A stretch of DNA of 55,090 bases from Nocardia ninae NBRC 108245 (GTDB lineage: Bacteria > Actinomycetota > Actinomycetes > Mycobacteriales > Mycobacteriaceae), in contig NZ_BJXA01000060.1 of NCBI RefSeq assembly GCF_007990755.1, positions 1 to 55,090 of the forward strand, given 5' to 3'. Both the position numbers and the translations under genes were made by a program. Positions 15,266 through 55,090 of the stretch are shown in pieces; the first letter of the stretch is position 1, and the number at the start of each line of letters is the position of its first letter. Below the pieces are notes generated by a model, which was given only the letters and a program-made list of their open reading frames with translations, searched no databases and was not told the origin of the DNA.

Positions 15266-15613
15266 GTGCTCGACGCATTGATGCGACTGCGTGAGATTGC
15301 CGAATCGTCCGCCGCTCAACCAAACCCGACAAGTGTTCGCGGCGCAGACCTTCCCGTTCAACCGAAGATCGCGCGCACGTGGCTCACAGAGGCCGAAGCG
15401 GTAGAGCTCACCGGCCGGTCACGATGGACTATCAGGGATTGGCGACTAGGCGGCTTGCTCACGTGCCAGAGCGGCTACGGTGCTCGGATGTACCGGCGAG
15501 ACGAGTTGATCGCTGTGCGGGACGCTCAGGCCGAGAACTACCGGCGCGGAGTGACGCGACCACGCCACCCGCGTGTGCCGACGTGCGCCGGACAGCTGGC
15601 GCTAGCGGTCTAG
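15266..15613 (+). CDS. MerR/HTH_17-type DNA-binding protein
   Basis: 115 residues, GTG 15266 with GGGAGT upstream. WLTEAEAVELTGRSRWTIRDWRLGGLL ... ARMYRRDELIAVRDAQ (about residues 39-85) is a winged HTH of the excisionase/MerR class, with an N-terminal 35-residue extension. Monocistronic: its own leader upstream and a strong terminator right behind. Possible regulator of the adjacent modules or a second directionality factor. Confidence 0.75.
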   Translation: MLDALMRLREIAESSAAQPNPTSVRGADLPVQPKIARTWLTEAEAVELTGRSRWTIRDWRLGGLLTCQSGYGARMYRRDELIAVRDAQAENYRRGVTRPRHPRVPTCAGQLALAV

Positions 15614-15619
15614 AACGCG

Positions 15620-15662
15620 AGAAGGGCCACCCCGCGATGCTGGGGTGGCCCTTCTTCTTTTG
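15620..15662. terminator. Strong terminator
   Basis: GAAGGGCCACCCC (15621-15633) pairs with GGGGTGGCCCTTC (15642-15654), followed by TTCTTTT. Lies between the rightward HTH gene and the 3' end of the leftward block, and may serve both. Confidence 0.9.
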
Positions 15663-15665
15663 GTA

Positions 15666-15824
15666 CTAGTCGAATTTCTGATTGACGATTTCGTCTAGAT
15701 TCCCCTGATGAGCCTTGACGAAATCCGTGCACTGGCCCAATGTCCAGTCCTGCGGATAGACCTGCTCGAAATTGTTGTAGATGTACCGTCGAAGCTGTTG
15801 CCGACGCTGCTCAATGGTGCTCAT
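15666..15824 (-). CDS. Small hypothetical protein
   Basis: 52 residues, ATG 15824-15822 overlapping the stop of the upstream gene (ATGA) and ending at TAG 15668-15666. The sequence is hydrophilic (QRRQQLRRYIYNNFEQVYPQ ... LGQCTDFVKAH). Last gene of the leftward accessory block. Unknown. Confidence 0.65.
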   Translation of the reverse strand: MSTIEQRRQQLRRYIYNNFEQVYPQDWTLGQCTDFVKAHQGNLDEIVNQKFD

Positions 15825-16198
15825 GCGATTGCCTCTGTGTCCACGTTGGTAAGGGTGAGTTCGGGAAAGCTGGCGCTGATGATCTTAGGTAGCCAGATGT
15901 CGTGACCGAACCCCCAGTACTGCACCCGTATACGGTTCGCGGAAGCGTTAGACGGATGTACGTGCAGGGCGGTCACTATCACCGTTGTTGTTGTCTGCTC
16001 AGTGCCACTGTTCCAGGTAAGCACGATCGGATTGCCGGTGAGCGACGCAGATATGAGCATGCTGCACCTGTCGAGATCCATGCTCGTAAGGTCTTGCAGT
16101 TCGTGCGCCAGGTCTGATTGGTTCGGCCAGTGCATTTCGGTCCGAGCGTTCAGCCCCTGCGGGAAATCTGCCCACGTTGTCGTCGTGAATGGCGCCAT
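15821..16198 (-). CDS. Hypothetical accessory protein
   Basis: 125 residues, beta-rich and Thr-rich (TTTTVIVTALHVHPSN ... YWGFGHDIWLPKII). It follows the 109-aa gene closely and is coupled to the 52-aa gene. No family recognised. Under the operator-linked promoter near 16951 if the block is one operon. Confidence 0.65.
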   Translation of the reverse strand: MAPFTTTTWADFPQGLNARTEMHWPNQSDLAHELQDLTSMDLDRCSMLISASLTGNPIVLTWNSGTEQTTTTVIVTALHVHPSNASANRIRVQYWGFGHDIWLPKIISASFPELTLTNVDTEAIA

Positions 16199-16199
16199 G

Positions 16200-16529
16200 C
16201 TAGTTCCCCTTGTTCGTTTTGATCATAGCGGTAATTCGATCGTAGTCTTTTCTGATTGCGCGTCCCTGTCGACGGGTGAACTCATCCACATCAGGCCCTA
16301 GAAAATTGTCTACGTGCAGCTCGAGGTGATACAGAAGCTTGTCTATCTTTTCGGTATCGAGCTGGCCGTAGTGGGCTCTCCATCCTCGGCCGACACGCTT
16401 GAATTCTGGCTCTGGAATATCTGGATTCTCGCGGTGAAATTCGGAGCAACCTGGGTCAAGGCAAGCGTCATAGGTTGTGCCGCTGACGATCACCTCGACC
16501 CGGTTGCTTCCGCTGCGTGGTTCGGTCAT
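16200..16529 (-). CDS. Hypothetical accessory protein
   Basis: 109 residues, overlapping the upstream gene by 4 nt. Beta N-terminus (VEVIVSGTTYDACLDPGCSEFH) and helical C-terminus (IDKLLYHLELHVDNFLG...RQGRAIRKDYDRI). Unknown function; second gene of the leftward block. Confidence 0.7.
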   Translation of the reverse strand: MTEPRSGSNRVEVIVSGTTYDACLDPGCSEFHRENPDIPEPEFKRVGRGWRAHYGQLDTEKIDKLLYHLELHVDNFLGPDVDEFTRRQGRAIRKDYDRITAMIKTNKGN

Positions 16530-16915
16530 CCGAAAGCGATGTCTCCGAGCATCGCGACTTGAAGCACCGCGTCAGCGTCGACCGCGTCCATGTCTGCCTC
16601 ATCCACGTTCAACAGCATATTCCGGCACTGTTTCTTGAGGCTGGCCCTCGCCTCAAAATCTTTGCCACTGATCTTCCGGAATGCCGCCATGAGATCCTTG
16701 TGCCGGATTTCCTTCGTGATGGTTTCGCCGTCCCGCGTGGGGTCCTCGATGGTGACACGCCACATCCAGCCTGCGGGGGCATCGAACGGGAATTCAGCCG
16801 GATACTCCCAGTCTCGATCGAGGCTCACCCACCAAGACCAGTTTGCCGGGAATCCGGTACCGAAGATCATGGTTTCGCTGTCGGTCTCTGTGGCCGCTTT
16901 GATCGTGGTCGACAT
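16526..16915 (-). CDS. Hypothetical accessory protein, first gene of operator-controlled leftward operon
   Basis: 129 residues from ATG 16915, chosen because AGGGAGGAAAATTC precedes it; the open frame to 16978 crosses the promoter. Tail-like tube or coat resemblance was considered: it contains DPTRDGETITKEIRHKDLMAAFRKI and LLNVDEADMDAVDADAVLQVAMLGDIAFG, but no family is certain. A promoter with TTGACA, 17 bp and TACAGT lies just upstream with a 19-bp palindrome in the spacer. Confidence 0.7.
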   Translation of the reverse strand: MSTTIKAATETDSETMIFGTGFPANWSWWVSLDRDWEYPAEFPFDAPAGWMWRVTIEDPTRDGETITKEIRHKDLMAAFRKISGKDFEARASLKKQCRNMLLNVDEADMDAVDADAVLQVAMLGDIAFG

Positions 16916-16949: not shown

Positions 16950-16978
16950 ACTGTATAGACCCTATACAGGACTGTCAA
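16950..16978 (-). promoter_or_regulatory. Promoter with operator palindrome (site 1)
   Basis: Reading leftward: TTGACA (16978-16973), 17 bp, TACAGT (16955-16950). The spacer and -10 carry CTGTATAGACCCTATACAG (16951-16969), a perfect 8-bp inverted repeat with a 3-bp centre. A bound protein would block RNA polymerase. The -35 overlaps the stop codon of the regulator gene. Confidence 0.75.
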
Positions 16979-17430
16979 CGGTTCTTTCTCGATGACTTGA
17001 AGTTCGGGCTGGCCTTTCCGAGGAAGTTCCGGATGGTGGGCCTGGTCATTCGGAACATCGTTGCCAGCTGCGTCTCTGGTACGCCCTTGCCGTTCGCGTT
17101 CAGGTCGGTCATCTCCGCACTCAGCGCCGCGCGTACGTCCCTCAGTCGGTCTTGTGCCGCGTCGTACTGGCCTCGTAGCAGGGCTGCACGCAGCTCGATC
17201 ACTGCGCGTTGCTGGTCATCCGCGACAACGCTTGGTGTCAAGAAGGGGAGCAGTTCGAGCGGGTCGGCAACCTCCGCGCCCGTCGCAATCGTGACCGCGT
17301 CGACGCCGGACAGCAGGGCTTGTGTAACTGCGTGCTCGACATCCGGCAACGGCGTGTGGTCCGGGGTGTCTCGGCGCGCTAGAAGGGCCTCTATCGCCGC
17401 CCGGCGTAGTTCGATCAGGTCTGTCGGCAT
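16975..17430 (-). CDS. C-terminal HTH regulator, probable autoregulated repressor of the 16-19.5 kb module
   Basis: 151 residues. The N-terminal ~110 residues are helical (IELRRAAIEALLARRD ... QYDAAQDRLRDVRAALSAEM) and may dimerise. The C-terminus carries a helix-turn-helix VPETQLATMFRMTRPTIRNFLG (about 118-139) and a basic tail. A promoter CTGACA-17 bp-TATAGT ends 8 bp before its ATG, so its transcript is probably leaderless, and an inverted repeat overlaps that -10. Three related palindromes lie at neighbouring promoters. That it binds them is inferred from location. Confidence 0.75.
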   Translation of the reverse strand: MPTDLIELRRAAIEALLARRDTPDHTPLPDVEHAVTQALLSGVDAVTIATGAEVADPLELLPFLTPSVVADDQQRAVIELRAALLRGQYDAAQDRLRDVRAALSAEMTDLNANGKGVPETQLATMFRMTRPTIRNFLGKASPNFKSSRKNR

Positions 17431-17473
17431 GTATAGGGACTATACGCAGGGGATTTGTGTATGTCAGCGGTCT
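17431..17473 (-). promoter_or_regulatory. Leaderless promoter with operator (site 2)
   Basis: Leftward -35 CTGACA, 17 bp spacer and -10 TATAGT, only 8 bp before the regulator ATG. The -10 lies inside GTATAG-GGA-CTATAC (17431-17445, plus-strand reading), a shorter version of the palindrome at site 1. Suggests autoregulation. Confidence 0.7.
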
Positions 17474-17499
17474 GAATTGATCTGAAGTTCTGCTATCGG

Positions 17500-17528
17500 T
17501 TGCGCTGGCTGTATAGACCCTATACAGT
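17500..17528 (+). promoter_or_regulatory. Promoter with operator palindrome (site 3)
   Basis: Rightward TTGCGC (17500-17505), 17 bp, TACAGT (17523-17528), with CTGTATAGACCCTATACAG at 17509-17527. The layout is identical to site 1. Would drive the rightward genes from 17635, leaving a leader of about 100 nt. Confidence 0.7.
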
Positions 17529-17634
17529 CGAACTCGCTTGAGTTGATTACGTGGTCCGTACCGGCAATGGTGCGGGTTGCGTTGGCAACTCCATGCATTC
17601 ATAACGTTTCCCACGCACAGGAAGAACGCACCCA

Positions 17635-17901
17635 ATGATCACTCAGGATGACGCGCGCAACGGATACGTGTTTCTCGACGGCCGTATCGGCATCGATGGC
17701 GCAATGCTGTTGCTCAGCACGGAGAACGGTGTAGCTCATGTGACCGAGCATGGCGACGGCTTCCATATTGACGTGTTCCCGTCGCATGCTCCGCGCGGTA
17801 AGCGGCATCCGGGCTATTTCATCGCGTGGAAGCTCGAAAACGCATTGCGTGTAGGTGCACGCATGCTTGAATTCATAGGAAAGGGATACGAAATTGGATA
17901 G
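17635..17901 (+). CDS. Hypothetical accessory protein, first gene of rightward operator-controlled operon
   Basis: 88 residues, ATG 17635 with AGGAAG 12 nt upstream. Small beta-rich domain (GYVFLDGRIGIDGAMLLLS ... DGFHIDVFPSHAP) and a C-terminal helix. Similar Nocardia/Gordonia phage proteins may exist but no function is recognised. Confidence 0.7.
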   Translation: MITQDDARNGYVFLDGRIGIDGAMLLLSTENGVAHVTEHGDGFHIDVFPSHAPRGKRHPGYFIAWKLENALRVGARMLEFIGKGYEIG

Positions 17902-17947
17902 GCGCGATGCTGCTAGAATCGCCTCAACATCGGAAGGAGTCGGAGCC

Positions 17948-18169
17948 GTGACGTACACCTACACGTGGACTGTCGAGCGCAGGGAAGACGAAAACAGTCC
18001 GTGGTTGCTACTCGACATGGGCACGGAATCGTCTTCGCTCGATATTCATCTCTTCTTGTCCCGTAAGCGCGACGAGTTGGAAGCGTGGGACTTTGACGAG
18101 CCGAACATGGATCTGAAGGTGTACGACTGGCCCGTGGAGAAGCGCCGGAAGCGGGATAACGCGGCATGA
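17948..18169 (+). CDS. Hypothetical small acidic protein
   Basis: 73 residues from GTG 17948, preferred over an upstream frame opening at 17894 because GGAAGGAG lies 11 nt before it. Sequence TYTYTWTVERREDENSPWLLLDMG ... charged tail EKRRKRDNAA. Its stop overlaps the next ATG. Confidence 0.65.
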   Translation: MTYTYTWTVERREDENSPWLLLDMGTESSSLDIHLFLSRKRDELEAWDFDEPNMDLKVYDWPVEKRRKRDNAA

Positions 18170-18462
18170 AGACTGAACGTTACTGGCTTGCGCAGGAATT
18201 GACAGACGAAGTCAACCGGCATTACGCCTGGTGCATCGGGGTCGCAGGTGGTTTCCAAGTCCGGGTGGCTGCACAGAAGCAAACGGCAACCGCTAAGGCG
18301 CGCACGGCAGGGAAGATCGAGGGTTTGCGCTTGGCCGCCGCGCACGCTCTGACTGTCGCGCAAGGTCTGTCGGAGGAGGAAGCCGAAGTGATAGTGCGAA
18401 ACGACTTCAAGCGCTACCTTGCTGCTGCGGCGATAGATGCCGAGAAGAGCGAAACGCTGTGA
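18166..18462 (+). CDS. Hypothetical helical protein
   Basis: 98 residues, ATG 18166 overlapping the preceding stop. Helical, Ala-rich (KARTAGKIEGLRLAAAHALTVAQGL ... EEEAEVIVRNDFKRYL). Unknown function; third gene of the rightward accessory operon. Confidence 0.65.
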   Translation: MKTERYWLAQELTDEVNRHYAWCIGVAGGFQVRVAAQKQTATAKARTAGKIEGLRLAAAHALTVAQGLSEEEAEVIVRNDFKRYLAAAAIDAEKSETL

Positions 18463-18484
18463 GGAGCAACAGAAGGCGTACGCC

Positions 18485-19036
18485 ATGGCCGAATTGAAGC
18501 TGACACCGCAACAAATTCAGATCCTTCGACGCATGCGCAACATCGAAGCAGGGACGAGCCGCAAAGTGCGACCGTTCAATGAGAACGGCACATTAGCGGA
18601 TACCGAGGTTGCGATACATGAATCTGGGACCATTGGCGACTCAAGCGGCATCCATCTTTCAACGGTTAAAGCGTTCGCGCGTCTCGGGCTCTGTACAGAA
18701 GTCAAAGTGTGGTCAGACTACGACGATTGGCTTACGCGAACCGGCACACGTCGGCGGATGTGGGAAACCAAGCTCACCGCCCTCGGTAAGACGCTGAAGC
18801 TGGACGAACAAACGGAACAGGTTCAGATCCGCGTATTTCGGAAGGATGTCTACAGCGGGTCCGGTTCCGTATCGGTTGACGACGCGCGAAAGTCGATAGC
18901 GCATTGCGAGTCGGACCCCGGAAGGTTCGAAGTGACGCGCGCCGGTGTGCTGGTTCAGGTGCAGGATTTGAGCGAAGAGACGCTGTTCGCCTACTGGTTC
19001 CCCAACGATGAAGAGACCACACAGTCGAGCAACTGA
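18485..19036 (+). CDS. Putative winged-helix-like accessory protein
   Basis: 183 residues from ATG 18485 (GAGGAGCAAC upstream). The first ~105 residues (LKLTPQQIQILRRMRNIEAG ... GIHLSTVKAFARLGL ... RRRMWETKLTALGKTL) look like a winged-helix module of the restriction/MarR kind. The C-terminal part is beta-rich (VLVQVQDLSEETLFAYWF). Function unknown. Operator site 4 begins within its last codons. Confidence 0.6.
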   Translation: MAELKLTPQQIQILRRMRNIEAGTSRKVRPFNENGTLADTEVAIHESGTIGDSSGIHLSTVKAFARLGLCTEVKVWSDYDDWLTRTGTRRRMWETKLTALGKTLKLDEQTEQVQIRVFRKDVYSGSGSVSVDDARKSIAHCESDPGRFEVTRAGVLVQVQDLSEETLFAYWFPNDEETTQSSN

Positions 19037-19051
19037 ATAGACCCTATACAG
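19033..19051 (+). promoter_or_regulatory. Operator palindrome (site 4)
   Basis: CTGAATAG-ACC-CTATACAG; differs from the perfect sites at a single position. Located 53 bp before the next gene and overlapping the end of the previous one. A TACAGG hexamer at 19047 takes the place of the -10 seen at sites 1 and 3, but no good -35 is present. Confidence 0.6.
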
Positions 19052-19103
19052 GATAGGGCGTAGCTGTTACGCTCGTTCCATATTCCGACAAGGAGCAAAC
19101 ATT

Positions 19104-19457
19104 ATGCGCACAGTAACGCTTTACGGAACCGACGCGATCGCAGCGGCCAAGACGCTTCCGAATGGGGCGGTTATCCGGGAATCCGAGCTTTTTAGTGACG
19201 GGACGCGCGAGTACGACCATAACCACGGGCAAGTCAGTGTGGACACCATGGTTTCCGCTCTGGAAGGATGGGCACGCAAATTCAGAACTGCTGATTCCGT
19301 GCACTTCACGTACACGCCCGATGGCGAGGGGAAGCCCAGTGCGGCGCACGAGAGCATTGCTGTTGTGAACATCCTTTGTGATGGTGAACAGTATGTTCGG
19401 TTCTTCGAGGTCAACAACCCGTTTAGTCGCGCTACGGCTGAGTTGGTAGATTTGTAG
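19104..19457 (+). CDS. Hypothetical accessory protein
   Basis: 117 residues, ATG 19104 with AAGGAG 9 nt upstream. Mixed alpha/beta (RTVTLYGTDAIAAAKTLPNG ... ESIAVVNILCDGEQYVRFFEV). Unknown. It stands alone between operator site 4 and a terminator. Confidence 0.7.
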   Translation: MRTVTLYGTDAIAAAKTLPNGAVIRESELFSDGTREYDHNHGQVSVDTMVSALEGWARKFRTADSVHFTYTPDGEGKPSAAHESIAVVNILCDGEQYVRFFEVNNPFSRATAELVDL

Positions 19458-19538
19458 ACAGCGGGACAGACCGCAGGCCGTAAGCGCCTCGCAGCACCAA
19501 GCAAAGGTGCTGAACGACAACTAAATACATGCATCGCA

Positions 19539-19580
19539 GACCCCCGGACGCCAGCGCGGCACCGGGGGTCTTGCTGTTTC
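19539..19580 (+). terminator. Terminator of the accessory module
   Basis: ACCCCCGG (19540-19547) pairs with CCGGGGGT (19562-19569) around a 14-nt loop, followed by CTTGCTGTTTCTAT. Confidence 0.8.
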
Positions 19581-19683
19581 TATACCGCTCCCCAGTGGAG
19601 AGCTGGCAGCTTCCCCCCGATGTTGGGGTGTGGCATCGGCGTGCGATTGAGGCGTGGTCAGCAATCAACGTTTGGAGGAAATC

Positions 19684-19791
19684 ATGAGTGCAGGCATGAG
19701 CTTTGATCAGTGGGTGGAGATCGGTAAGGCTGCCGTCGCTATCGGCAAGCTCGTTCTTCCCATCCTGGGGGCGATTCTGAGCGCCCTCTAG
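19684..19791 (+). CDS. Hydrophobic/amphipathic 35-residue peptide
   Basis: ATG 19684 with a near-perfect GGAGGAAATC ribosome site, TAG 19789-19791. The N-terminus is polar (MSAGMSFDQWVEIGK); the rest is a hydrophobic helix with two Lys (AAVAIGKLVLPILGAILSAL). Isolated between two strong hairpins, so it is a one-gene transcript with strong translation signals. It could be a membrane-active peptide (toxin, holin-like or porin-like); no family is identified. Confidence 0.65.
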   Translation: MSAGMSFDQWVEIGKAAVAIGKLVLPILGAILSAL

Positions 19792-19851: not shown

Positions 19852-19858
19852 CCATACA

Positions 19859-19929
19859 GGCGTGTAGCTCAACGGGTAGAGCGCCGGTCTCATAAGCCGG
19901 AACGCGGTGGTTCGAGCCCACCCATGCCA
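19859..19929 (+). tRNA. Phage tRNA with CAT anticodon (Met or Ile2)
   Basis: Acceptor GGCGTG/CATGCC (6 bp plus an unpaired seventh position), D stem GCTC/GAGC, anticodon stem 19884-19888/19896-19900 with loop CTCATAA (anticodon 19891-19893), T arm GGTGG-TTCGAGC-CCACC. Slightly short acceptor. Different from the host tRNA at 98, so phage-borne. Confidence 0.85.
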
Positions 19930-19949
19930 ACGAAGCCACGGGTACCCAA

Positions 19950-20000
19950 CCTCTAGCGAGTGTGGCACGGGATACCGGTTCAACTCCGGTCCGCTAGAGG
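19950..20000 (+). ncRNA. tRNA-like minihelix (9-bp acceptor plus T arm)
   Basis: CCTCTAGCG (19950-19958) pairs perfectly with CGCTAGAGG (19992-20000). Inside is ACCGG-TTCAACT-CCGGT (19974-19990), a T-arm with a near-consensus loop. Only 15 nt stand where D and anticodon arms would be, so it cannot decode. Same plan as 3138-3179. It lies inside the tRNA cluster between two good tRNAs. Confidence 0.6.
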
Positions 20001-20044
20001 ACACAAGCAACCCAATCCGGTAGTGGGTGAATATCCGGAGCGTT

Positions 20045-20069
20045 TTGCCGTGCGGAGGGGTCACGGCAA
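20045..20069 (+). other. Perfect hairpin before tRNA-Lys
   Basis: TTGCCGTG (20045-20052) pairs with CACGGCAA (20062-20069) with a 9-nt loop. It ends 3 nt before the tRNA-Lys 5' end and may guide 5' processing or spacing in the polycistronic RNA. Confidence 0.5.
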
Positions 20070-20072
20070 GCC

Positions 20073-20145
20073 GGGCGCGTAGCTCAACTGGTAGAGCAGG
20101 CGACTTTTAATCGTCGGGTTCGGGGTTCGAGTCCCTGCGCGCCCA
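20073..20145 (+). tRNA. tRNA-Lys (TTT)
   Basis: Acceptor GGGCGCG/CGCGCCC perfect, D stem GCTC/GAGC, anticodon stem GGCGA/TCGTC, loop CTTTTAA with TTT at 20106-20108, T arm CGGGG-TTCGAGT-CCCTG, discriminator A. Reads AAA/AAG. Lys-UUU is the classical target of the PrrC anticodon nuclease. Confidence 0.95.
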
Positions 20146-20151
20146 CTCGTT

Positions 20152-20222
20152 TCCCCCGTGGTGTAACGGCAGCACATCGGATTTTGGTTCCGATAGTTCA
20201 GGTTCGAAACCTGGCGGGGGAG
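20152..20222 (+). tRNA. tRNA-Gln (TTG)
   Basis: Acceptor TCCCCCG/CGGGGGA, anticodon stem TCGGA/TCCGA, loop TTTTGGT with TTG at 20184-20186, T arm with TTCGAAA loop. Discriminator G. Reads CAA, a rare codon in a high-GC host. Confidence 0.95.
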
Positions 20223-20267
20223 CGTTGAAAGCTGCTGCGGCGTAGAGGGTTCTCGTCGTGAGGGTAA

Positions 20268-20338
20268 GCGGATGTAGCTCAGTGGTAGAGCGGCGGTCTC
20301 CAAAACCGTTGGCGCGGGTTCGATTCCTGCCATTCGTG
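20268..20338 (+). tRNA. tRNA-Trp (CCA)
   Basis: Acceptor GCGGATG/CATTCGT (includes G-U pairs), D stem GCTC/GAGC, anticodon stem GCGGT/ACCGT, loop CTCCAAA with CCA at 20300-20302, T loop TTCGATT, discriminator G. Confidence 0.93.
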
Positions 20339-20404
20339 CTAGTCCATCAGTTCGGATGCATACGAGCTGAAAACTCTGGAAGTAGCTAACCAGGGGGACA
20401 AATA

Positions 20405-20475
20405 ACGGTAGTCGTCTAGTGGCCTAGGACTCTCCCGCTGAGGGGGCAACGTCGGTTCGAATCCGACCTACCGTG
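20405..20475 (+). tRNA. tRNA-Glu-like with a 5-nt anticodon loop
   Basis: Body like tRNA-Glu: acceptor ACGGTAG/CTACCGT, D arm GTCT...GGAC, T arm GTCGG-TTCGAAT-CCGAC. The anticodon stem CTCCC (20432-20436) with GGGGG (20442-20446) is fully paired but encloses only GCTGA. A normal 7-nt loop and U33 are missing, and the variable loop CAAC is normal, so two loop bases appear deleted. Probably unable to decode. It could be a pseudo-tRNA or a decoy for anticodon nucleases. Confidence 0.7.
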
Positions 20476-20484
20476 CTTAGCGGT

Positions 20485-20505
20485 CCGTGAACAGGGAGTT
20501 CACGG
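20485..20505 (+). other. Hairpin after the tRNA cluster
   Basis: CCGTGAA (20485-20491) pairs with TTCACGG (20499-20505), loop CAGGGAG. No U-run. Possible processing signal at the 3' end of the tRNA transcript. Confidence 0.5.
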
Positions 20506-20536
20506 GGCAACAGGGGCATGCACTCCCCGCCGCGTT

Positions 20537-20681
20537 GTGGAGGTTCCAAGTCGGTACAAGGGCATGTCCCGTTGCGCGACTAGGTACGTCGAAGGGTCAC
20601 CCGGCATATGGAGGCATCCGCCGGGCGGACGTTCGCTTGCTTGGAACTTAAGAACGAGGCGCCGCTACGCGCCTACTCCAC
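20537..20681 (+). ncRNA. Structured RNA candidate closed by two long-range helices
   Basis: GTGGAG (20537-20542) pairs with CTCCAC (20676-20681), and directly inside, GTTCCAAG (20543-20550) pairs with CTTGGAAC (20640-20647). The 28-nt bulge contains an AGGCG/CGCCT hairpin, and the interior holds a CCGGC/GCCGG hairpin. About 14 bp of perfect long-range pairing in a gene-free stretch suggests a folded RNA of about 145 nt downstream of the tRNAs. No known family recognised; no gene seen here. Confidence 0.5.
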
Positions 20682-20720
20682 ACCTTCCGTCTAGCCAGTG
20701 GTGACAGTCGCGGGGGTGAG

Positions 20721-21149
20721 ATGTTCACACGCTCACCCCTACGCCTTGCCCTCGAATCAGGCGACCGTAAAGCCATCATCAAAACGGTTCGGGCGAGAGC
20801 TCATGTCGACCCCGTTTCCGGCTGCCACATTTGGCCGCTACGTCCCAAGGACCCGTATCCGAGGGTCACTGTCGGGCGCCGCACAATCGACGTTCACAGG
20901 GCCGTTCTGGAAGCGCGCCTAGGTTATCCGCTCGGGGACATGGCCGCACACCACCGTTGCAGCGTCGCCCGTTGCGTGAATCCTGATCACCTACAGCCGG
21001 TTACGCAAGCGTCGAACGTCGCAGAGATGTTGGCGCGCACCTATTACGTGTCGCGCATTCGAGCGCTAGAAGCCGCGTTGTCCGCGATCCGCCCATGCCA
21101 TGAGTTATTGCGTGGGTACCCCGATTCTGATGTCGCAAAACCCGTCTGA
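20721..21149 (+). CDS. HNH homing-type endonuclease
   Basis: 142 residues. HNH_3-type core: SGCHIWPL, VTVGRRTIDVHRAVLEARLGYPLG, AHHRCSVARCVNPDHLQPVTQASNVAEM with the catalytic His and the Cys/Asn/His residues present. Such genes are free-standing mobile nucleases of phages. It follows the RNA cluster and may have brought or maintained it. ATG 20721 follows a GGGGGTGAG ribosome site. Confidence 0.88.
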   Translation: MFTRSPLRLALESGDRKAIIKTVRARAHVDPVSGCHIWPLRPKDPYPRVTVGRRTIDVHRAVLEARLGYPLGDMAAHHRCSVARCVNPDHLQPVTQASNVAEMLARTYYVSRIRALEAALSAIRPCHELLRGYPDSDVAKPV

Positions 21150-21163
21150 CCTGCGGTTATATG

Positions 21164-21185
21164 CCAGCCGGCCGCGGCCGGCTGG
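21164..21185. terminator. 22-bp perfect palindrome behind the HNH gene
   Basis: CCAGCCGGCCGCGGCCGGCTGG is self-complementary over its whole length. In RNA it forms a very stable hairpin; no U-tract follows. Likely a transcription end or processing element. Confidence 0.5.
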
Positions 21186-21236
21186 GACTGCGGGGTCACT
21201 TGCAGTTAACCCCGATCGAGACCGGAGGCACGCGGG

Positions 21237-21416
21237 TTGAGCCGCACCTACAGAGACCGAGACAACTACCGCGAACACCGACACGAAAGCGGCTTCTCGC
21301 GACGCAACACGCGTCGGCAAGAACGCAACAAGGTTCGGGACCACATCCGGCATGAGCGGTTCGAAGACGCGGATACGCGACAGACGAAAAACACCGAAGG
21401 GTGGCTAAGCCATTGA
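21237..21416 (+). CDS. Arg/His-rich small basic protein
   Basis: 59 residues from TTG 21237, supported by GGAGGCACGCGGG just upstream. About one third Arg, His or Lys (YRDRDNYREHRHESGFSRRN), with no hydrophobic core. Probably binds nucleic acid or is intrinsically disordered. It lies between the HNH and RNA-repair genes. No family recognised. Confidence 0.55.
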   Translation: MSRTYRDRDNYREHRHESGFSRRNTRRQERNKVRDHIRHERFEDADTRQTKNTEGWLSH

Positions 21417-21501
21417 GCACTACACAGCGTGACGAAACAGGCTGAGCACTAACAGGTTTCGCAACGATCACACCTGCACACCAACCGTGAGGACGCCAAA
21501 C

Positions 21502-21678
21502 ATGCTCAACCGCAACAAGCGCAAGCCGACCCGTACCAGCTCGACCCCCCGTAGCGCCAACGACCAGGCCGCGCCGGTCACCTACTTCGGTGGCGGTTCC
21601 GTCGAGGCCACTCACACCGCGCCCAGTGCACCCAGCTGTGACACTTCGTTCAGCGCAGGGGATTGCGGCGCGTTCTAA
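21502..21678 (+). CDS. Small Ser/Thr/Pro-rich protein
   Basis: 58 residues from ATG 21502 (GTGAGGA upstream; a GTG at 21487 is the alternative). Basic N-terminus (RNKRKPTRTSS), low-complexity body and two Cys near the end (SCDTSFSAGDCGAF). Precedes the kinase gene by 16 nt. Unknown. Confidence 0.5.
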   Translation: MLNRNKRKPTRTSSTPRSANDQAAPVTYFGGGSVEATHTAPSAPSCDTSFSAGDCGAF

Positions 21679-21694
21679 ATCGAGGTAACCACGA

Positions 21695-22603
21695 ATGCCT
21701 GATCTGGTGATCACGCGAGGGTGGCCCGGCAGCGGCAAAACAACCTACGCCCGGCAATGGGTCACTGAAGCACCACGCCGAGTAAAAGCGCCCTCCCGCG
21801 ACGACTTACGCGCCACCCTCTACAACGGCGCTGGCGTACTCGCCTACCCACAAGAAGACCTCATCACCGAAGTGCAAGAACAAGCCGTACGGACCCTGAT
21901 CAGGGCCGGGCACTCAACCGTCGTTGATGACACAAACTTGCGTACGAGCTATGCGCAGCGCTGGGCGACCCTGGCGGACAAGCTCGGCGCCGGATTCCAC
22001 GTGATCGACATGGAATCCGACCTTGCAACCTGCCTGGCGCACAACGAAGCGCGGCGCGCAGCTGGCGGACGGTACACAGACCCTCGCGCCATCGAAGGAA
22101 TCGCACAGCGGTTCCCGATAACCCAGTGGCAGCCGATCACAGCACGGCCCGCGCTTGAGGTGGAACCGTACGTGAACGACGCGACCAAACCGGACGCGTA
22201 CATCGTTGACGTAGACGGCACCATCGCGCACATGCACGGGCGCGGCCCGTTCGACTGGACGCGCGTAGGTGAGGACTCCCTAGATTTCGAGGTCGTAGAC
22301 CTACTGCTCACGCTGAAACTCGGCAACCCGAACGCTCAATTCATTGTCGTATCCGGCAGATCCGATATTTGCCGTCCGGAGACTCTCGAATGGATTCGCC
22401 GCTATTGGGCGGAACCGGACGCGCTGCACATGCGCCGACATGGCGACGTACGCCGAGACGACATTGTCAAGCTCGAAATCTTCAACACCCACATCCGGCA
22501 TCAGTTCAACGTGCTCGGCGTTTTTGACGACAGGAACAGTGTCGTAGCGATGTGGCGACAACTCGGACTCAAATGCTTCCAAGTAGCCGAAGGTGACTTC
22601 TAA
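21695..22603 (+). CDS. pnk: Polynucleotide 5'-kinase / 3'-phosphatase
   Basis: 302 residues in the T4 Pnkp order. The kinase domain has the P-loop GWPGSGKTT (residues 9-17) and VVDDTNLR. The HAD-type phosphatase has DVDGT (172-176), VSGRSD, and GVFDDRNSVVAMWRQLGLKC near the C-terminus. It heals broken RNA ends (2',3'-cyclic phosphate and 5'-OH) so that a ligase can seal them. The adjacent RNA ligase and the tRNA cluster support tRNA repair after anticodon cleavage. Confidence 0.95.
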   Translation: MPDLVITRGWPGSGKTTYARQWVTEAPRRVKAPSRDDLRATLYNGAGVLAYPQEDLITEVQEQAVRTLIRAGHSTVVDDTNLRTSYAQRWATLADKLGAGFHVIDMESDLATCLAHNEARRAAGGRYTDPRAIEGIAQRFPITQWQPITARPALEVEPYVNDATKPDAYIVDVDGTIAHMHGRGPFDWTRVGEDSLDFEVVDLLLTLKLGNPNAQFIVVSGRSDICRPETLEWIRRYWAEPDALHMRRHGDVRRDDIVKLEIFNTHIRHQFNVLGVFDDRNSVVAMWRQLGLKCFQVAEGDF

Positions 22604-22605
22604 CA

Positions 22606-23946
22606 GTGAAATTCGACGCACCCAAGAACCCGAACTACGCAGCCACAGTCACGGCAGTCAGGGTGATCAAACCGCTTCCCGGACGCGACAAGATTGTCTC
22701 TGTTCCCTTGTACGGATACGAAGCGATCGTGCCCAAGGCATGGCAGCCGGGCGAACTCGGCGTGTTCATCCCGGCGGAATGTCAGCTGTCGCACGACTAC
22801 GCCACCGCAAACAACATGTACCGGCACTCCGATCTGAACGAGAACCCCGAAGTAACCGGATACCTCGAAGACAACCGGAGAGTCAAAGCTATTCGTCTCG
22901 GCGGGCATCCATCGAACGCATTGTTCATGCCACTCGAATCTCTAGCGTTCACCGGTGTCGACGTGAGCGAGCTCCGTGAAGGTGACACATTCGACGTACT
23001 GAACGGAGTTGAAATCGTCCGCAAGTACGAGCGTCCCCGCAAGAGCAACGGCATGAGCACAAGCGGAAACCAGGCCCCGAAGTCCTCACGTATCGACAAG
23101 TTGCACTTTCCGGAACATCTCGACACGTCGAACTACTTCCGCATGTCCAACAGGATCGAACCGAGCGACTTCCTGTGGGTCAGCCAGAAATTGCACGGAA
23201 CAAGCGTGCGGTTCGGGCGCACCGTTGTGCAACGCAAGCTCACCCTCCGGGAACGTCTCGCACGACGCTTCGGCGTCTCGGTACAAACCACCGAATACGC
23301 GAACGTGTACGGCAGCCGACGCGCCATCAAGGACGCATCAAACCCCGACCAGGCGCACTACTACACCACCGACATTTGGACTATCGCCGGACGCAAATAC
23401 GACGAGGTCATACCCTCCGGATACCTGGTGTACGGCGAACTCATCGGATGGACACCAGACGGCACGCCACTACAGACGGGCTACACCTACGGGGTACCTC
23501 CGGGCCGATCCGACCTGTACGTGTACCGCGTCGCCACCATCAACCCGCAAGGGTTCATGACTGACCTGTCATGGCCGCAAGTCGAAGAGTTCTGCACAAA
23601 CCATGGGCTTGCGACAGTACCGCTGCTGTGGGCTGGATACGCAGAGAACTTCGACGCTGACGCGTGGATGAACAAACGCTACGCAGATCAGGGATATCGA
23701 GCCGTACCACTCGAACCAGGCGACACCGTAGATGAAGGCGTAATCGTCCGCATAGACGGACTCACACCACGCATCTACAAAGCAAAAGCGAGCCGCTTCC
23801 TTGAGCACGAAACCAAGTCGCTGGATGACGACAACGCAATAGACATGGAAGAACTCGGAAGCCTCACCGAACAAGCGACGCACACAGCAACCGACACGGT
23901 AGAAGCGCGTGCGTCCACTGGTGAACTTGTGAGCAGCGTTCCATAG
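22606..23946 (+). CDS. RNA ligase (Rnl-type with N-terminal OB-like domain)
   Basis: 446 residues, GTG 22606. Nucleotidyltransferase motifs: KLHGTS (motif I, adenylated Lys195), NVYGSRR, YLVYGELIGW (IIIa), DEGVIVRIDG (IV), IYKAKASR (V). The first ~150 residues form a separate beta-rich domain (YAATVTAVRVIKPLPGRDKI ... PGELGVFIPAEC), as in Deinococcus/Naegleria-type RNA ligases. The ~40-residue C-terminal tail is acidic. Starts 2 nt after the kinase-phosphatase stop, so the two are one repair unit. Confidence 0.92.
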   Translation: MKFDAPKNPNYAATVTAVRVIKPLPGRDKIVSVPLYGYEAIVPKAWQPGELGVFIPAECQLSHDYATANNMYRHSDLNENPEVTGYLEDNRRVKAIRLGGHPSNALFMPLESLAFTGVDVSELREGDTFDVLNGVEIVRKYERPRKSNGMSTSGNQAPKSSRIDKLHFPEHLDTSNYFRMSNRIEPSDFLWVSQKLHGTSVRFGRTVVQRKLTLRERLARRFGVSVQTTEYANVYGSRRAIKDASNPDQAHYYTTDIWTIAGRKYDEVIPSGYLVYGELIGWTPDGTPLQTGYTYGVPPGRSDLYVYRVATINPQGFMTDLSWPQVEEFCTNHGLATVPLLWAGYAENFDADAWMNKRYADQGYRAVPLEPGDTVDEGVIVRIDGLTPRIYKAKASRFLEHETKSLDDDNAIDMEELGSLTEQATHTATDTVEARASTGELVSSVP

Positions 23947-55077: not shown

Positions 55078-55090
55078 GGACTCATAATCC
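55078..55090 (+). other. Probable start of the right attachment site (attR), cut by the window edge
   Basis: GGACTCATAATCC shares GACTCATAATC (11 bases) with the anticodon arm of the tRNA at 98-171 (128-138), then differs by one base. It is a perfect Met-type anticodon hairpin. No D arm lies upstream, so it is not a whole tRNA. The window ends here, so the length of the repeat cannot be measured. Confidence 0.45.

What the first reader, a model, noticed from the sequence alone, without database searches (positions are those of the whole stretch)
16950..19051. Dedicated operator network around a C-terminal HTH regulator
Four palindromes of the form CTGTATAG-N3-CTATACAG occur only at the promoters of the 16-19.5 kb module: 16951-16969 and 17509-17527 (perfect and identical), 17431-17445 (shorter), and 19033-19051 (one mismatch). 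At two of them a TTGnnn, 17 bp, TACAGT promoter has the palindrome in its spacer. The regulator gene lies between them. This looks like a self-contained, probably conditional, accessory regulon separate from the immunity switch, controlling about nine unknown genes.
Basis: partly seen in the sequence, partly recalled or inferred. Interest (0 to 1): 0.8.

Follow-up and report, generated by a model that had tools for sequence, protein, structure and literature searches.

The report
Self-regulated accessory cassette in a prophage
A prophage in an actinomycete carries a small extra gene cassette with its own probable repressor, whose likely binding palindrome lies over the cassette's promoters, including the repressor's own; this looks like a new example of a familiar kind of phage switch.

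Summary
Four copies of CTGTATAG-N3-CTATACAG (two perfect, one with 1 mismatch, one with only a perfect 15-bp core) lie within 2.1 kb; 0.03 are expected in the window. Two sit in the same register inside a TTGnnn-17-TACAGT promoter. The third covers the -10 of the regulator's own promoter (CTGACA-17-TATAGT) with the ATG 8 nt on, so that message is probably leaderless and autoregulated. The fourth overlaps a stop codon; its promoter is unclear. The 3.9-kb cassette is the most AT-rich stretch of its size in the window, is bracketed by probable terminators, and is missing upstream of the terminase in three of four sister prophages; the fourth has two of its genes without palindrome or regulator. 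Best reading: an accessory cassette under a self-contained repressor. Binding by the 151-aa protein is inferred: it has no detectable family and weak helix-turn-helix support. Of 149 other genomes of the genus, one has clustered copies: four palindromes (0, 2, 1, 0 mismatches) just 3' of a plasmid-type parB, without promoters. That leaves open, at low probability, mimicry of a plasmid centromere.

The parts
16951..16969 (.). O1: perfect operator palindrome CTGTATAGACCCTATACAG in the spacer and -10 of the leftward promoter PL (-35 TTGACA 16978-16973, -10 TACAGT 16955-16950)
17431..17445 (.). O2: 15-bp palindrome GTATAGGGACTATAC over the -10 of the regulator's promoter (CTGACA 17467-17462, TATAGT 17444-17439), touching its ATG (17430-17428)
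17509..17527 (.). O3: perfect palindrome, identical to O1, inside the rightward promoter PR (TTGCGC 17500-17505, TACAGT 17523-17528)
19033..19051 (.). O4: palindrome with one mismatch; the mismatch lies in the TGA stop (19034-19036) of the upstream gene; 52 bp before the start of the 19104 gene; promoter unclear
16975..17430 (-). candidate regulator, 151 aa, possible C-terminal helix-turn-helix, no detectable homologue, probably leaderless mRNA
16526..16915 (-). leftward gene 1, 129 aa, PHROG 2355 (unknown); 48% identical relative in sister prophage G019
16200..16529 (-). leftward gene 2, 109 aa, unknown
15821..16198 (-). leftward gene 3, 125 aa, PHROG 7081 (unknown); relatives in 75 phage records, 73 of them named Mycobacterium phages
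15666..15824 (-). leftward gene 4, 52 aa, unknown
17635..17901 (+). rightward gene 1, 88 aa, unknown; 39% identical relative in sister prophage G019
17948..18169 (+). rightward gene 2, 73 aa, unknown
18166..18462 (+). rightward gene 3, 98 aa, unknown (weak EccE-like hit, 17.8 bits, below the Pfam cut-off of 23.7)
18485..19036 (+). rightward gene 4, 183 aa, unknown; 34% over 62 aa to a place in L035 at E 0.03 only
19104..19457 (+). rightward gene 5, 117 aa, unknown, downstream of O4
15619..15656 (.). strong stem (folded 15615-15665, -33 kcal/mol) with T-rich tail, left boundary of the cassette
19537..19572 (+). GC-rich stem (folded 19530-19590, -29 kcal/mol), probable right-hand terminator; not listed by the terminator scan

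Best explanation
The 15.66-19.54 kb stretch is an acquired accessory cassette (a moron) of a temperate actinophage. Its 151-aa protein is a dimeric repressor that binds CTGTATAG-N3-CTATACAG. Bound at O1 and O3 it covers the spacer and -10 of PL (four genes leftward) and PR (genes rightward); bound at O2 it covers the -10 of its own leaderless promoter, so it limits its own synthesis; O4 tunes or blocks expression of the last gene. An unknown signal, or dilution after infection, would release it. Shown: the sites, their register with promoter-like hexamers, clustering, bracketing stems, low GC and absence from sister stretches. Inferred: that this protein is the binder, that it represses, that it is a dimer, the leaderless start, and every step about signals.
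For: Four sites in 2.1 kb against 0.03 expected. A host regulator is unlikely to be the binder, since the rest of the genome has one 3-mismatch match. O1 and O3 lie in the same register inside TTGnnn-17-TACAGT and share flanking TCGnACT. O2 overlaps the regulator's CTGACA-17-TATAGT with the ATG 8 nt on, within the 7-12 bp from -10 centre to start reported for M. tuberculosis (PMC3898074, passages). The two promoter-like matches at 15.3-20 kb are those at O1 and O2, although 1.9 are expected by chance. Stems on both sides; lowest GC of any stretch of this size in the window, 56.6% against 60.6% overall; no cassette gene in L033, L034 or L036 at E 1e-3, nor at E 0.1. Weak HTH support for the protein's C-terminus: PHROG 141 at E 0.007 for the C-terminal piece, 53% over 36 aa to a place annotated 'HTH protein' in phage phiPsal1 at E 0.1, HigA at E 1.
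Against: No homologue or family for the regulator, so neither its HTH nor its pairing with the motif is tested by conservation. Each HTH hit is weak, and one of them (PHROG 16278, 'HTH DNA binding protein', E 0.09) falls on residues 17-59, not on the C-terminus. Pfam finds no HTH domain even in the C-terminal piece at E 10. O4 has no promoter in the common register. Other DNA-binding proteins of the phage could bind instead: the 115-aa HTH_17-like protein at 15266-15613 (24.3 bits, Pfam cut-off 27) or the Cro-like one at 2711-2968. The same palindrome arms occur without this gene beside a parB in G218.
Confidence: 0.58

Rival explanations
1. The palindromes are operators, but of another phage-encoded DNA-binding protein, for example the HTH_17/excisionase-like protein just left of the cassette (15266-15613) or the Cro-like or repressor proteins at 2.0-3.0 kb; the 151-aa protein does something else.
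For: Those proteins have better-supported HTH or repressor families than the 151-aa protein.
Against: Relatives of each are encoded in sister stretches that lack the palindrome at up to 3 mismatches, and no palindrome lies at their own genes. The 151-aa gene carries a site at its own start.
Confidence: 0.17
2. The sites are mimics of a plasmid centromere (parS): a plasmid ParB binds them, so that a resident plasmid would control, or be disturbed by, the cassette.
For: Contig G218:C73 (same genus, 27 kb) has four copies of the palindrome with 0, 2, 1 and 0 mismatches within 166 bp just 3' of parB in a parA-parB pair. No match at up to 1 mismatch in 396 other genomes of the order (an even draw that does not include G218). 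SGI1 is a described case of parS mimicry (PMC10954446, abstract and one section).
Against: Four plasmid relatives of that ParB (44-47% identity) carry a different palindrome, GTGGAAAGACTCTTTCCAC or its inner part, in the 3' end of parB, and none of six plasmid loci has this one at up to 4 mismatches. Three of the phage sites sit in promoter-like hexamers while the G218 sites have no -35 in register. The own genome has two ParBs only 33% identical to it and no other site cluster.
Confidence: 0.06
3. The regulator is an activator, or the palindromes act as RNA hairpins (attenuators or processing sites) rather than operators.
For: An 8-bp stem with a 3-nt loop could form in RNA; O4 would be transcribed from the upstream genes.
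Against: At O1-O3 the palindrome lies at or before the predicted start of transcription, so those promoters would not transcribe it; a 17-bp spacer with the site over the -10 fits occlusion better than activation (inference).
Confidence: 0.12
4. Chance palindromes without function.
For: The motif is short; single matches to its 14-base core occur in 85 viral stretches with no gene in common, and the backwards control matches more often than the pattern itself at 2-3 mismatches.
Against: 0.03 expected and four found, clustered and in register with promoter-like hexamers.
Confidence: 0.02

Closest known systems
BPs gp33 repressor regulon of mycobacteriophages (PMC4557955; passages seen)
   Same: small phage-encoded repressor (gp33, 103 or 136 residues) controlling four promoters through a repeated palindrome, with a weaker related sequence at its own promoter
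   Different: gp33 is the immunity repressor with attP inside its gene, 12-bp palindromes paired at 5-8 bp and sites spread along the genome; here sites are single 15-19-bp dyads confined to one accessory cassette, and the immunity-type genes lie elsewhere
Cluster O mycobacteriophage palindromes TGTTCGG-N3-CCGAACA (PMC4351075; passages seen, all map legends)
   Same: a repeated palindrome with 7-bp arms and a 3-nt spacer, marked on actinophage genome maps together with SigA-like promoters
   Different: another sequence; the passages seen name no binder and do not say that the palindromes overlap promoters
SGI1 parS mimicry of IncC plasmids (PMC10954446; abstract and one section seen)
   Same: an integrated element carrying palindromes alike to a plasmid's centromere; the IncC parS before parA also partly overlaps a -10
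   Different: in SGI1 ParB binding was shown by gel shift; here the plasmid-like contig is in another species and no binding is tested
Stoperators of mycobacteriophages (recalled; title and start of abstract of PMC9283540 seen in the listing)
   Same: a repeated repressor site in a phage
   Different: stoperators are asymmetric and distributed across the phage genome; the sites here are symmetric and local

Membership tests
Accessory cassette (moron) of a temperate phage | absent from close relatives at the same locus | tested here: met
   no cassette gene in L033, L034, L036 (tblastn); in L033 and L034 the flanking genes lie 122 and 103 nt apart. L035 has two gene relatives in another arrangement. 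Only up to 20 kb upstream of each terminase was read
Accessory cassette (moron) of a temperate phage | own promoters and terminators | tested here: met
   (sequence prediction only)
Accessory cassette (moron) of a temperate phage | deviating base composition | tested here: met
   56.6% GC against 60.6%; none of the windows of the same size (step 200) is lower
Accessory cassette (moron) of a temperate phage | expressed in the lysogen | not testable with these tools
   no RNA data
Autoregulated dyad-operator repressor | operator overlapping the regulator's own promoter | tested here: met
   O2 over TATAGT and next to the ATG (predicted promoter)
Autoregulated dyad-operator repressor | recognisable DNA-binding domain | tested here: inconclusive
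   sub-threshold HTH-like hits only, one of them on the N-terminal part
Autoregulated dyad-operator repressor | protein binds the palindrome | not testable with these tools
   needs a gel shift or footprint
BPs-type integration-dependent immunity repressor | attachment site inside the regulator gene, beside the integrase | tested here: not met
   the integrase lies at 182-1375 beside a tRNA-Met, over 15 kb from the regulator; the exact attachment core is not proven
Plasmid partition system (parABS) | parA and parB next to the sites | tested here: not met
   none of the ten cassette proteins matches ParA or ParB
Known anti-phage defence system | significant PADLOC match | tested here: not met
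   ten proteins, one hit, DrmC at E 0.05 over 15 residues

The most novel reading that the evidence does not exclude
The cassette's operators are functional look-alikes of the centromere of a plasmid lineage in the same genus (G218:C73). A plasmid ParB would bind and perhaps spread from the promoters of the prophage cassette, so that plasmid presence switches the cassette's genes, or the phage titrates ParB and destabilises the plasmid. The 151-aa protein would be the prophage's own competitor for the same site.
Probability: 0.06. Interest if true: 0.75.

Novelty: new member of a known kind. Interest (0 to 1): 0.4.

Why it matters
It gives a compact, testable repressor-operator pair (four short DNA sites, one 151-aa protein without a known relative) for actinomycete phages, where I recall few characterised regulators outside immunity, and it shows one early/tRNA junction where sister prophages have no cassette or a different one with a different repeated promoter element. 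If the palindrome shared with a plasmid parB locus is not chance, it would be a case of prophage-plasmid cross-talk.

Tried and rejected
Homologue hunts for the 151-aa protein: viral contigs, genome contigs, 198 related genomes (own plus G187 at E 5e-4 through a stop codon), 397 genomes of the order at E up to 0.05 (64 genomes with a match, own included; best foreign one the same G187 place; short fragments mostly inside much longer frames, read as noise), phages, plasmids, Pfam, PHROG, NCBIfam, PADLOC and PDB. Cassette-gene hunts: viral contigs for three genes and genome contigs for one gave none; of three genes searched by protein in phages only the 125-aa one had relatives. DNA-level: the cassette has no match in phages, and the first 25 kb has one, in a tRNA.

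Motif in viral contigs: three exact full-arm matches lie in contigs of 35-39% GC with spacer TTA or TAA and no relative of the regulator or a cassette gene. 85 stretches had the 14-base core (which tabulates 80); all 85 were scanned: two have GC above 55% (L076, L107, one site each), none has two sites at up to 1 mismatch of the 14-base arms, and none encodes a relative of the regulator (tblastn E 1) or of a cassette gene (E 0.01). Read as chance.

Control in the genus scan: the pattern read backwards has about 77 forward matches at up to 2 mismatches (my hand count of the table), the pattern itself 13, of which 3 are in G000 and 4 in G218.

Related ParB loci of six plasmids: motif in 0 of 6 at up to 4 mismatches. 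The 191-base G218 array has no match in the plasmid collection. A text search for the two arms found 577 papers; the 20 listed titles are on other subjects. The titles listed by searches (each a capped list) do not name this system. That is no proof of absence from print.

One of my own notes was wrong: the stretch TACCTTTGTTTTCGTACGAT in sister prophages is coding (end of the excisionase-like gene), as one search shows.
Full report
WHAT WAS CHECKED. The window is contig C60 of a 9.7-Mb genome; the genus is not named to me. Nocardia is my inference from genome size and from the closest plasmid ParBs of a congener. It holds a temperate phage: integrase (182-1375) beside a tRNA-Met, DnaB-like helicase, RusA-like resolvase, terminase and portal.

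THE SITES. At up to 3 mismatches CTGTATAG-N3-CTATACAG occurs four times in the window, all between 16951 and 19051; dinucleotide shuffles expect 0.03. The rest of the genome has one 3-mismatch match; the backwards control has 13 at that level, so the 17431 site (3 mismatches to the full pattern) counts because of its perfect 15-bp core and its place. Four random positions would cluster this tightly with probability 2e-4 (the cluster was noticed first, so this number is descriptive).

THE PROMOTERS. O1 (- strand) and O3 (+ strand) have the same design: a TTGnnn hexamer, 3 nt, the 19-bp palindrome, with TACAGT starting 17 nt after the first hexamer, then TCGnACT. O1's -35 is a perfect TTGACA and overlaps the stop codon of the regulator gene; O3's is TTGCGC. 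O2 overlaps CTGACA-17-TATAGT on the - strand; the A of the regulator's ATG is 8 nt further on and I see no Shine-Dalgarno-like sequence before it, so the message is probably leaderless. The distance fits the 7-12 bp between -10 centre and start reported for M. tuberculosis (PMC3898074, passages). The consensus scan found two promoters at 15.3-20 kb, and both are these (O1, O2), but 1.9 are expected by chance, so the register with the palindrome, not the hexamers alone, carries the argument. O4 does not fit: the same register gives GTCGAG and TACAGG. Its single mismatch lies in the TGA stop of the upstream gene.

THE CASSETTE. Four genes run left from PL (15666-16915), the regulator lies between, and five run right (17635-19457) (a simple coding score of my own). 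Two (125 and 129 aa) match PHROG families of unknown function; the others have no match that I would trust. None has a PADLOC match better than E 0.05. A strong stem at 15619-15656 and one at 19537-19572 bracket it (the second is not in the scan). Its GC is 56.6%, and no stretch of that size in the window is lower (step 200); the regulator gene itself is 63.6%.

RELATIVES. A terminase search in 148 genomes of the genus gave matches in 23, own included. I fetched six stretches upstream of the best relatives' terminases (one only 4 kb long, one beside a broken terminase). The four close ones, at 65-69% terminase identity, are L033-L036. The regulator is in 0 of 6 and the motif at up to 3 mismatches in 0 of 6 (two 4-mismatch matches, L034 and L038). 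Cassette genes are in 1 of 6: L035, with relatives of the 129-aa gene (47%) and the 88-aa gene (39%), and a third at E 0.03 only. In L033 and L034 the excisionase-like gene is followed after 122 and 103 nt by the small peptide gene that lies beyond the cassette here, so the cassette is an insertion here or a loss there. L036 also lacks all cassette genes. The 129-aa gene family is in 2 of 148 genomes of the genus, G000 and G019. In G019 the promoters of that region carry another repeated element, GTTGACACAAAAC, over the -35: 11 exact and 2 one-mismatch copies at C2:7.9-47.6 kb and two matches elsewhere in that genome, none in the window at up to 2 mismatches. Related cassette genes thus occur with two different promoter networks.

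THE REGULATOR. No convincing relative was found. HTH support is weak: PHROG 141 (terminase small subunit) at E 0.02 for the whole protein and 0.007 for the C-terminal piece, 36 aa at 53% to a place annotated 'HTH protein' in phage phiPsal1 (E 0.1), and a PDB HigA alignment at E 1. A PHROG 'HTH DNA binding protein' hit at E 0.09 falls on residues 17-59 instead, and Pfam finds no HTH in the C-terminal piece. No fold could be computed.

THE SAME ARMS ELSEWHERE. Of 150 genomes of the genus, 8 have a match at up to 2 mismatches: G000, G218 and six with a single 2-mismatch match; the backwards control has about 77 matches by my count. G218:C73 has four copies in 166 bp (0, 2, 1, 0 mismatches) immediately 3' of a ParB-family gene (HTH_ParB E 6e-8) in a parA-parB pair. 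None has a good -35 in register (best 3 of 6), so they look like a centromere array. Of 397 genomes of the order at up to 1 mismatch, only G000 matches; G218 was not in that draw. Four plasmid relatives of that ParB at 44-47% identity carry a different palindrome. I estimate the coincidence at between one in two hundred (from the background of 2-mismatch hits) and one in ten (allowing for the many operator families in mobile elements); this is my own estimate, not a computed value. It is noted as a lead, not as evidence of binding.

VERDICT. The most likely mechanism is an autoregulated repressor of an acquired cassette (0.58). This is a new member of a known kind of phage regulation; the orphan regulator, the leaderless autoregulated promoter and the plasmid look-alike are what make it worth keeping.

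Noticed in passing
19858-23946: A tRNA array (Met, Lys, Gln, Trp, Gln) is followed by polynucleotide kinase and RNA ligase genes (PHROG 505, E 1.9e-91; PHROG 968, E 9e-93), which looks like a tRNA supply and repair set.
   Followed up: partly
L035 and G019:C2:7912-47605: Sister prophage has 11 exact and 2 one-mismatch copies of the asymmetric GTTGACACAAAAC; those read in L035 lie over the -35 of leftward promoters, a stoperator-like network.
   Followed up: partly
19684-19791; L033 16351, L034 16817: A short hydrophobic or amphipathic peptide (MSAGMSFDQWVEIGKAAVAIGKLVLPILGAILSAL here) has 46-51% identical relatives in two sister prophages.
   Followed up: no
L033 about 16279-16305, L034 about 16740-16766, L036 about 16870-16895: Short block with GGGAA(A)CCT(C/T)ACGCGGT(A/T)AGCG after the excisionase-like gene in three sister prophages, outside the genes read there.
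   Followed up: no
128-138 and 55079-55089: GACTCATAATC of the tRNA-Met anticodon region recurs at the very end of the contig, a possible attachment core; an 11-base match that may be chance. The host or phage status of 48-55 kb is not settled.
   Followed up: partly
L057-L060: Nocardia plasmid parAB loci carry the palindrome GTGGAAAGACTCTTTCCAC (in L060 its inner part) in the 3' end of parB, and in L057-L059 a longer form of it before parA: a likely parS.
   Followed up: no
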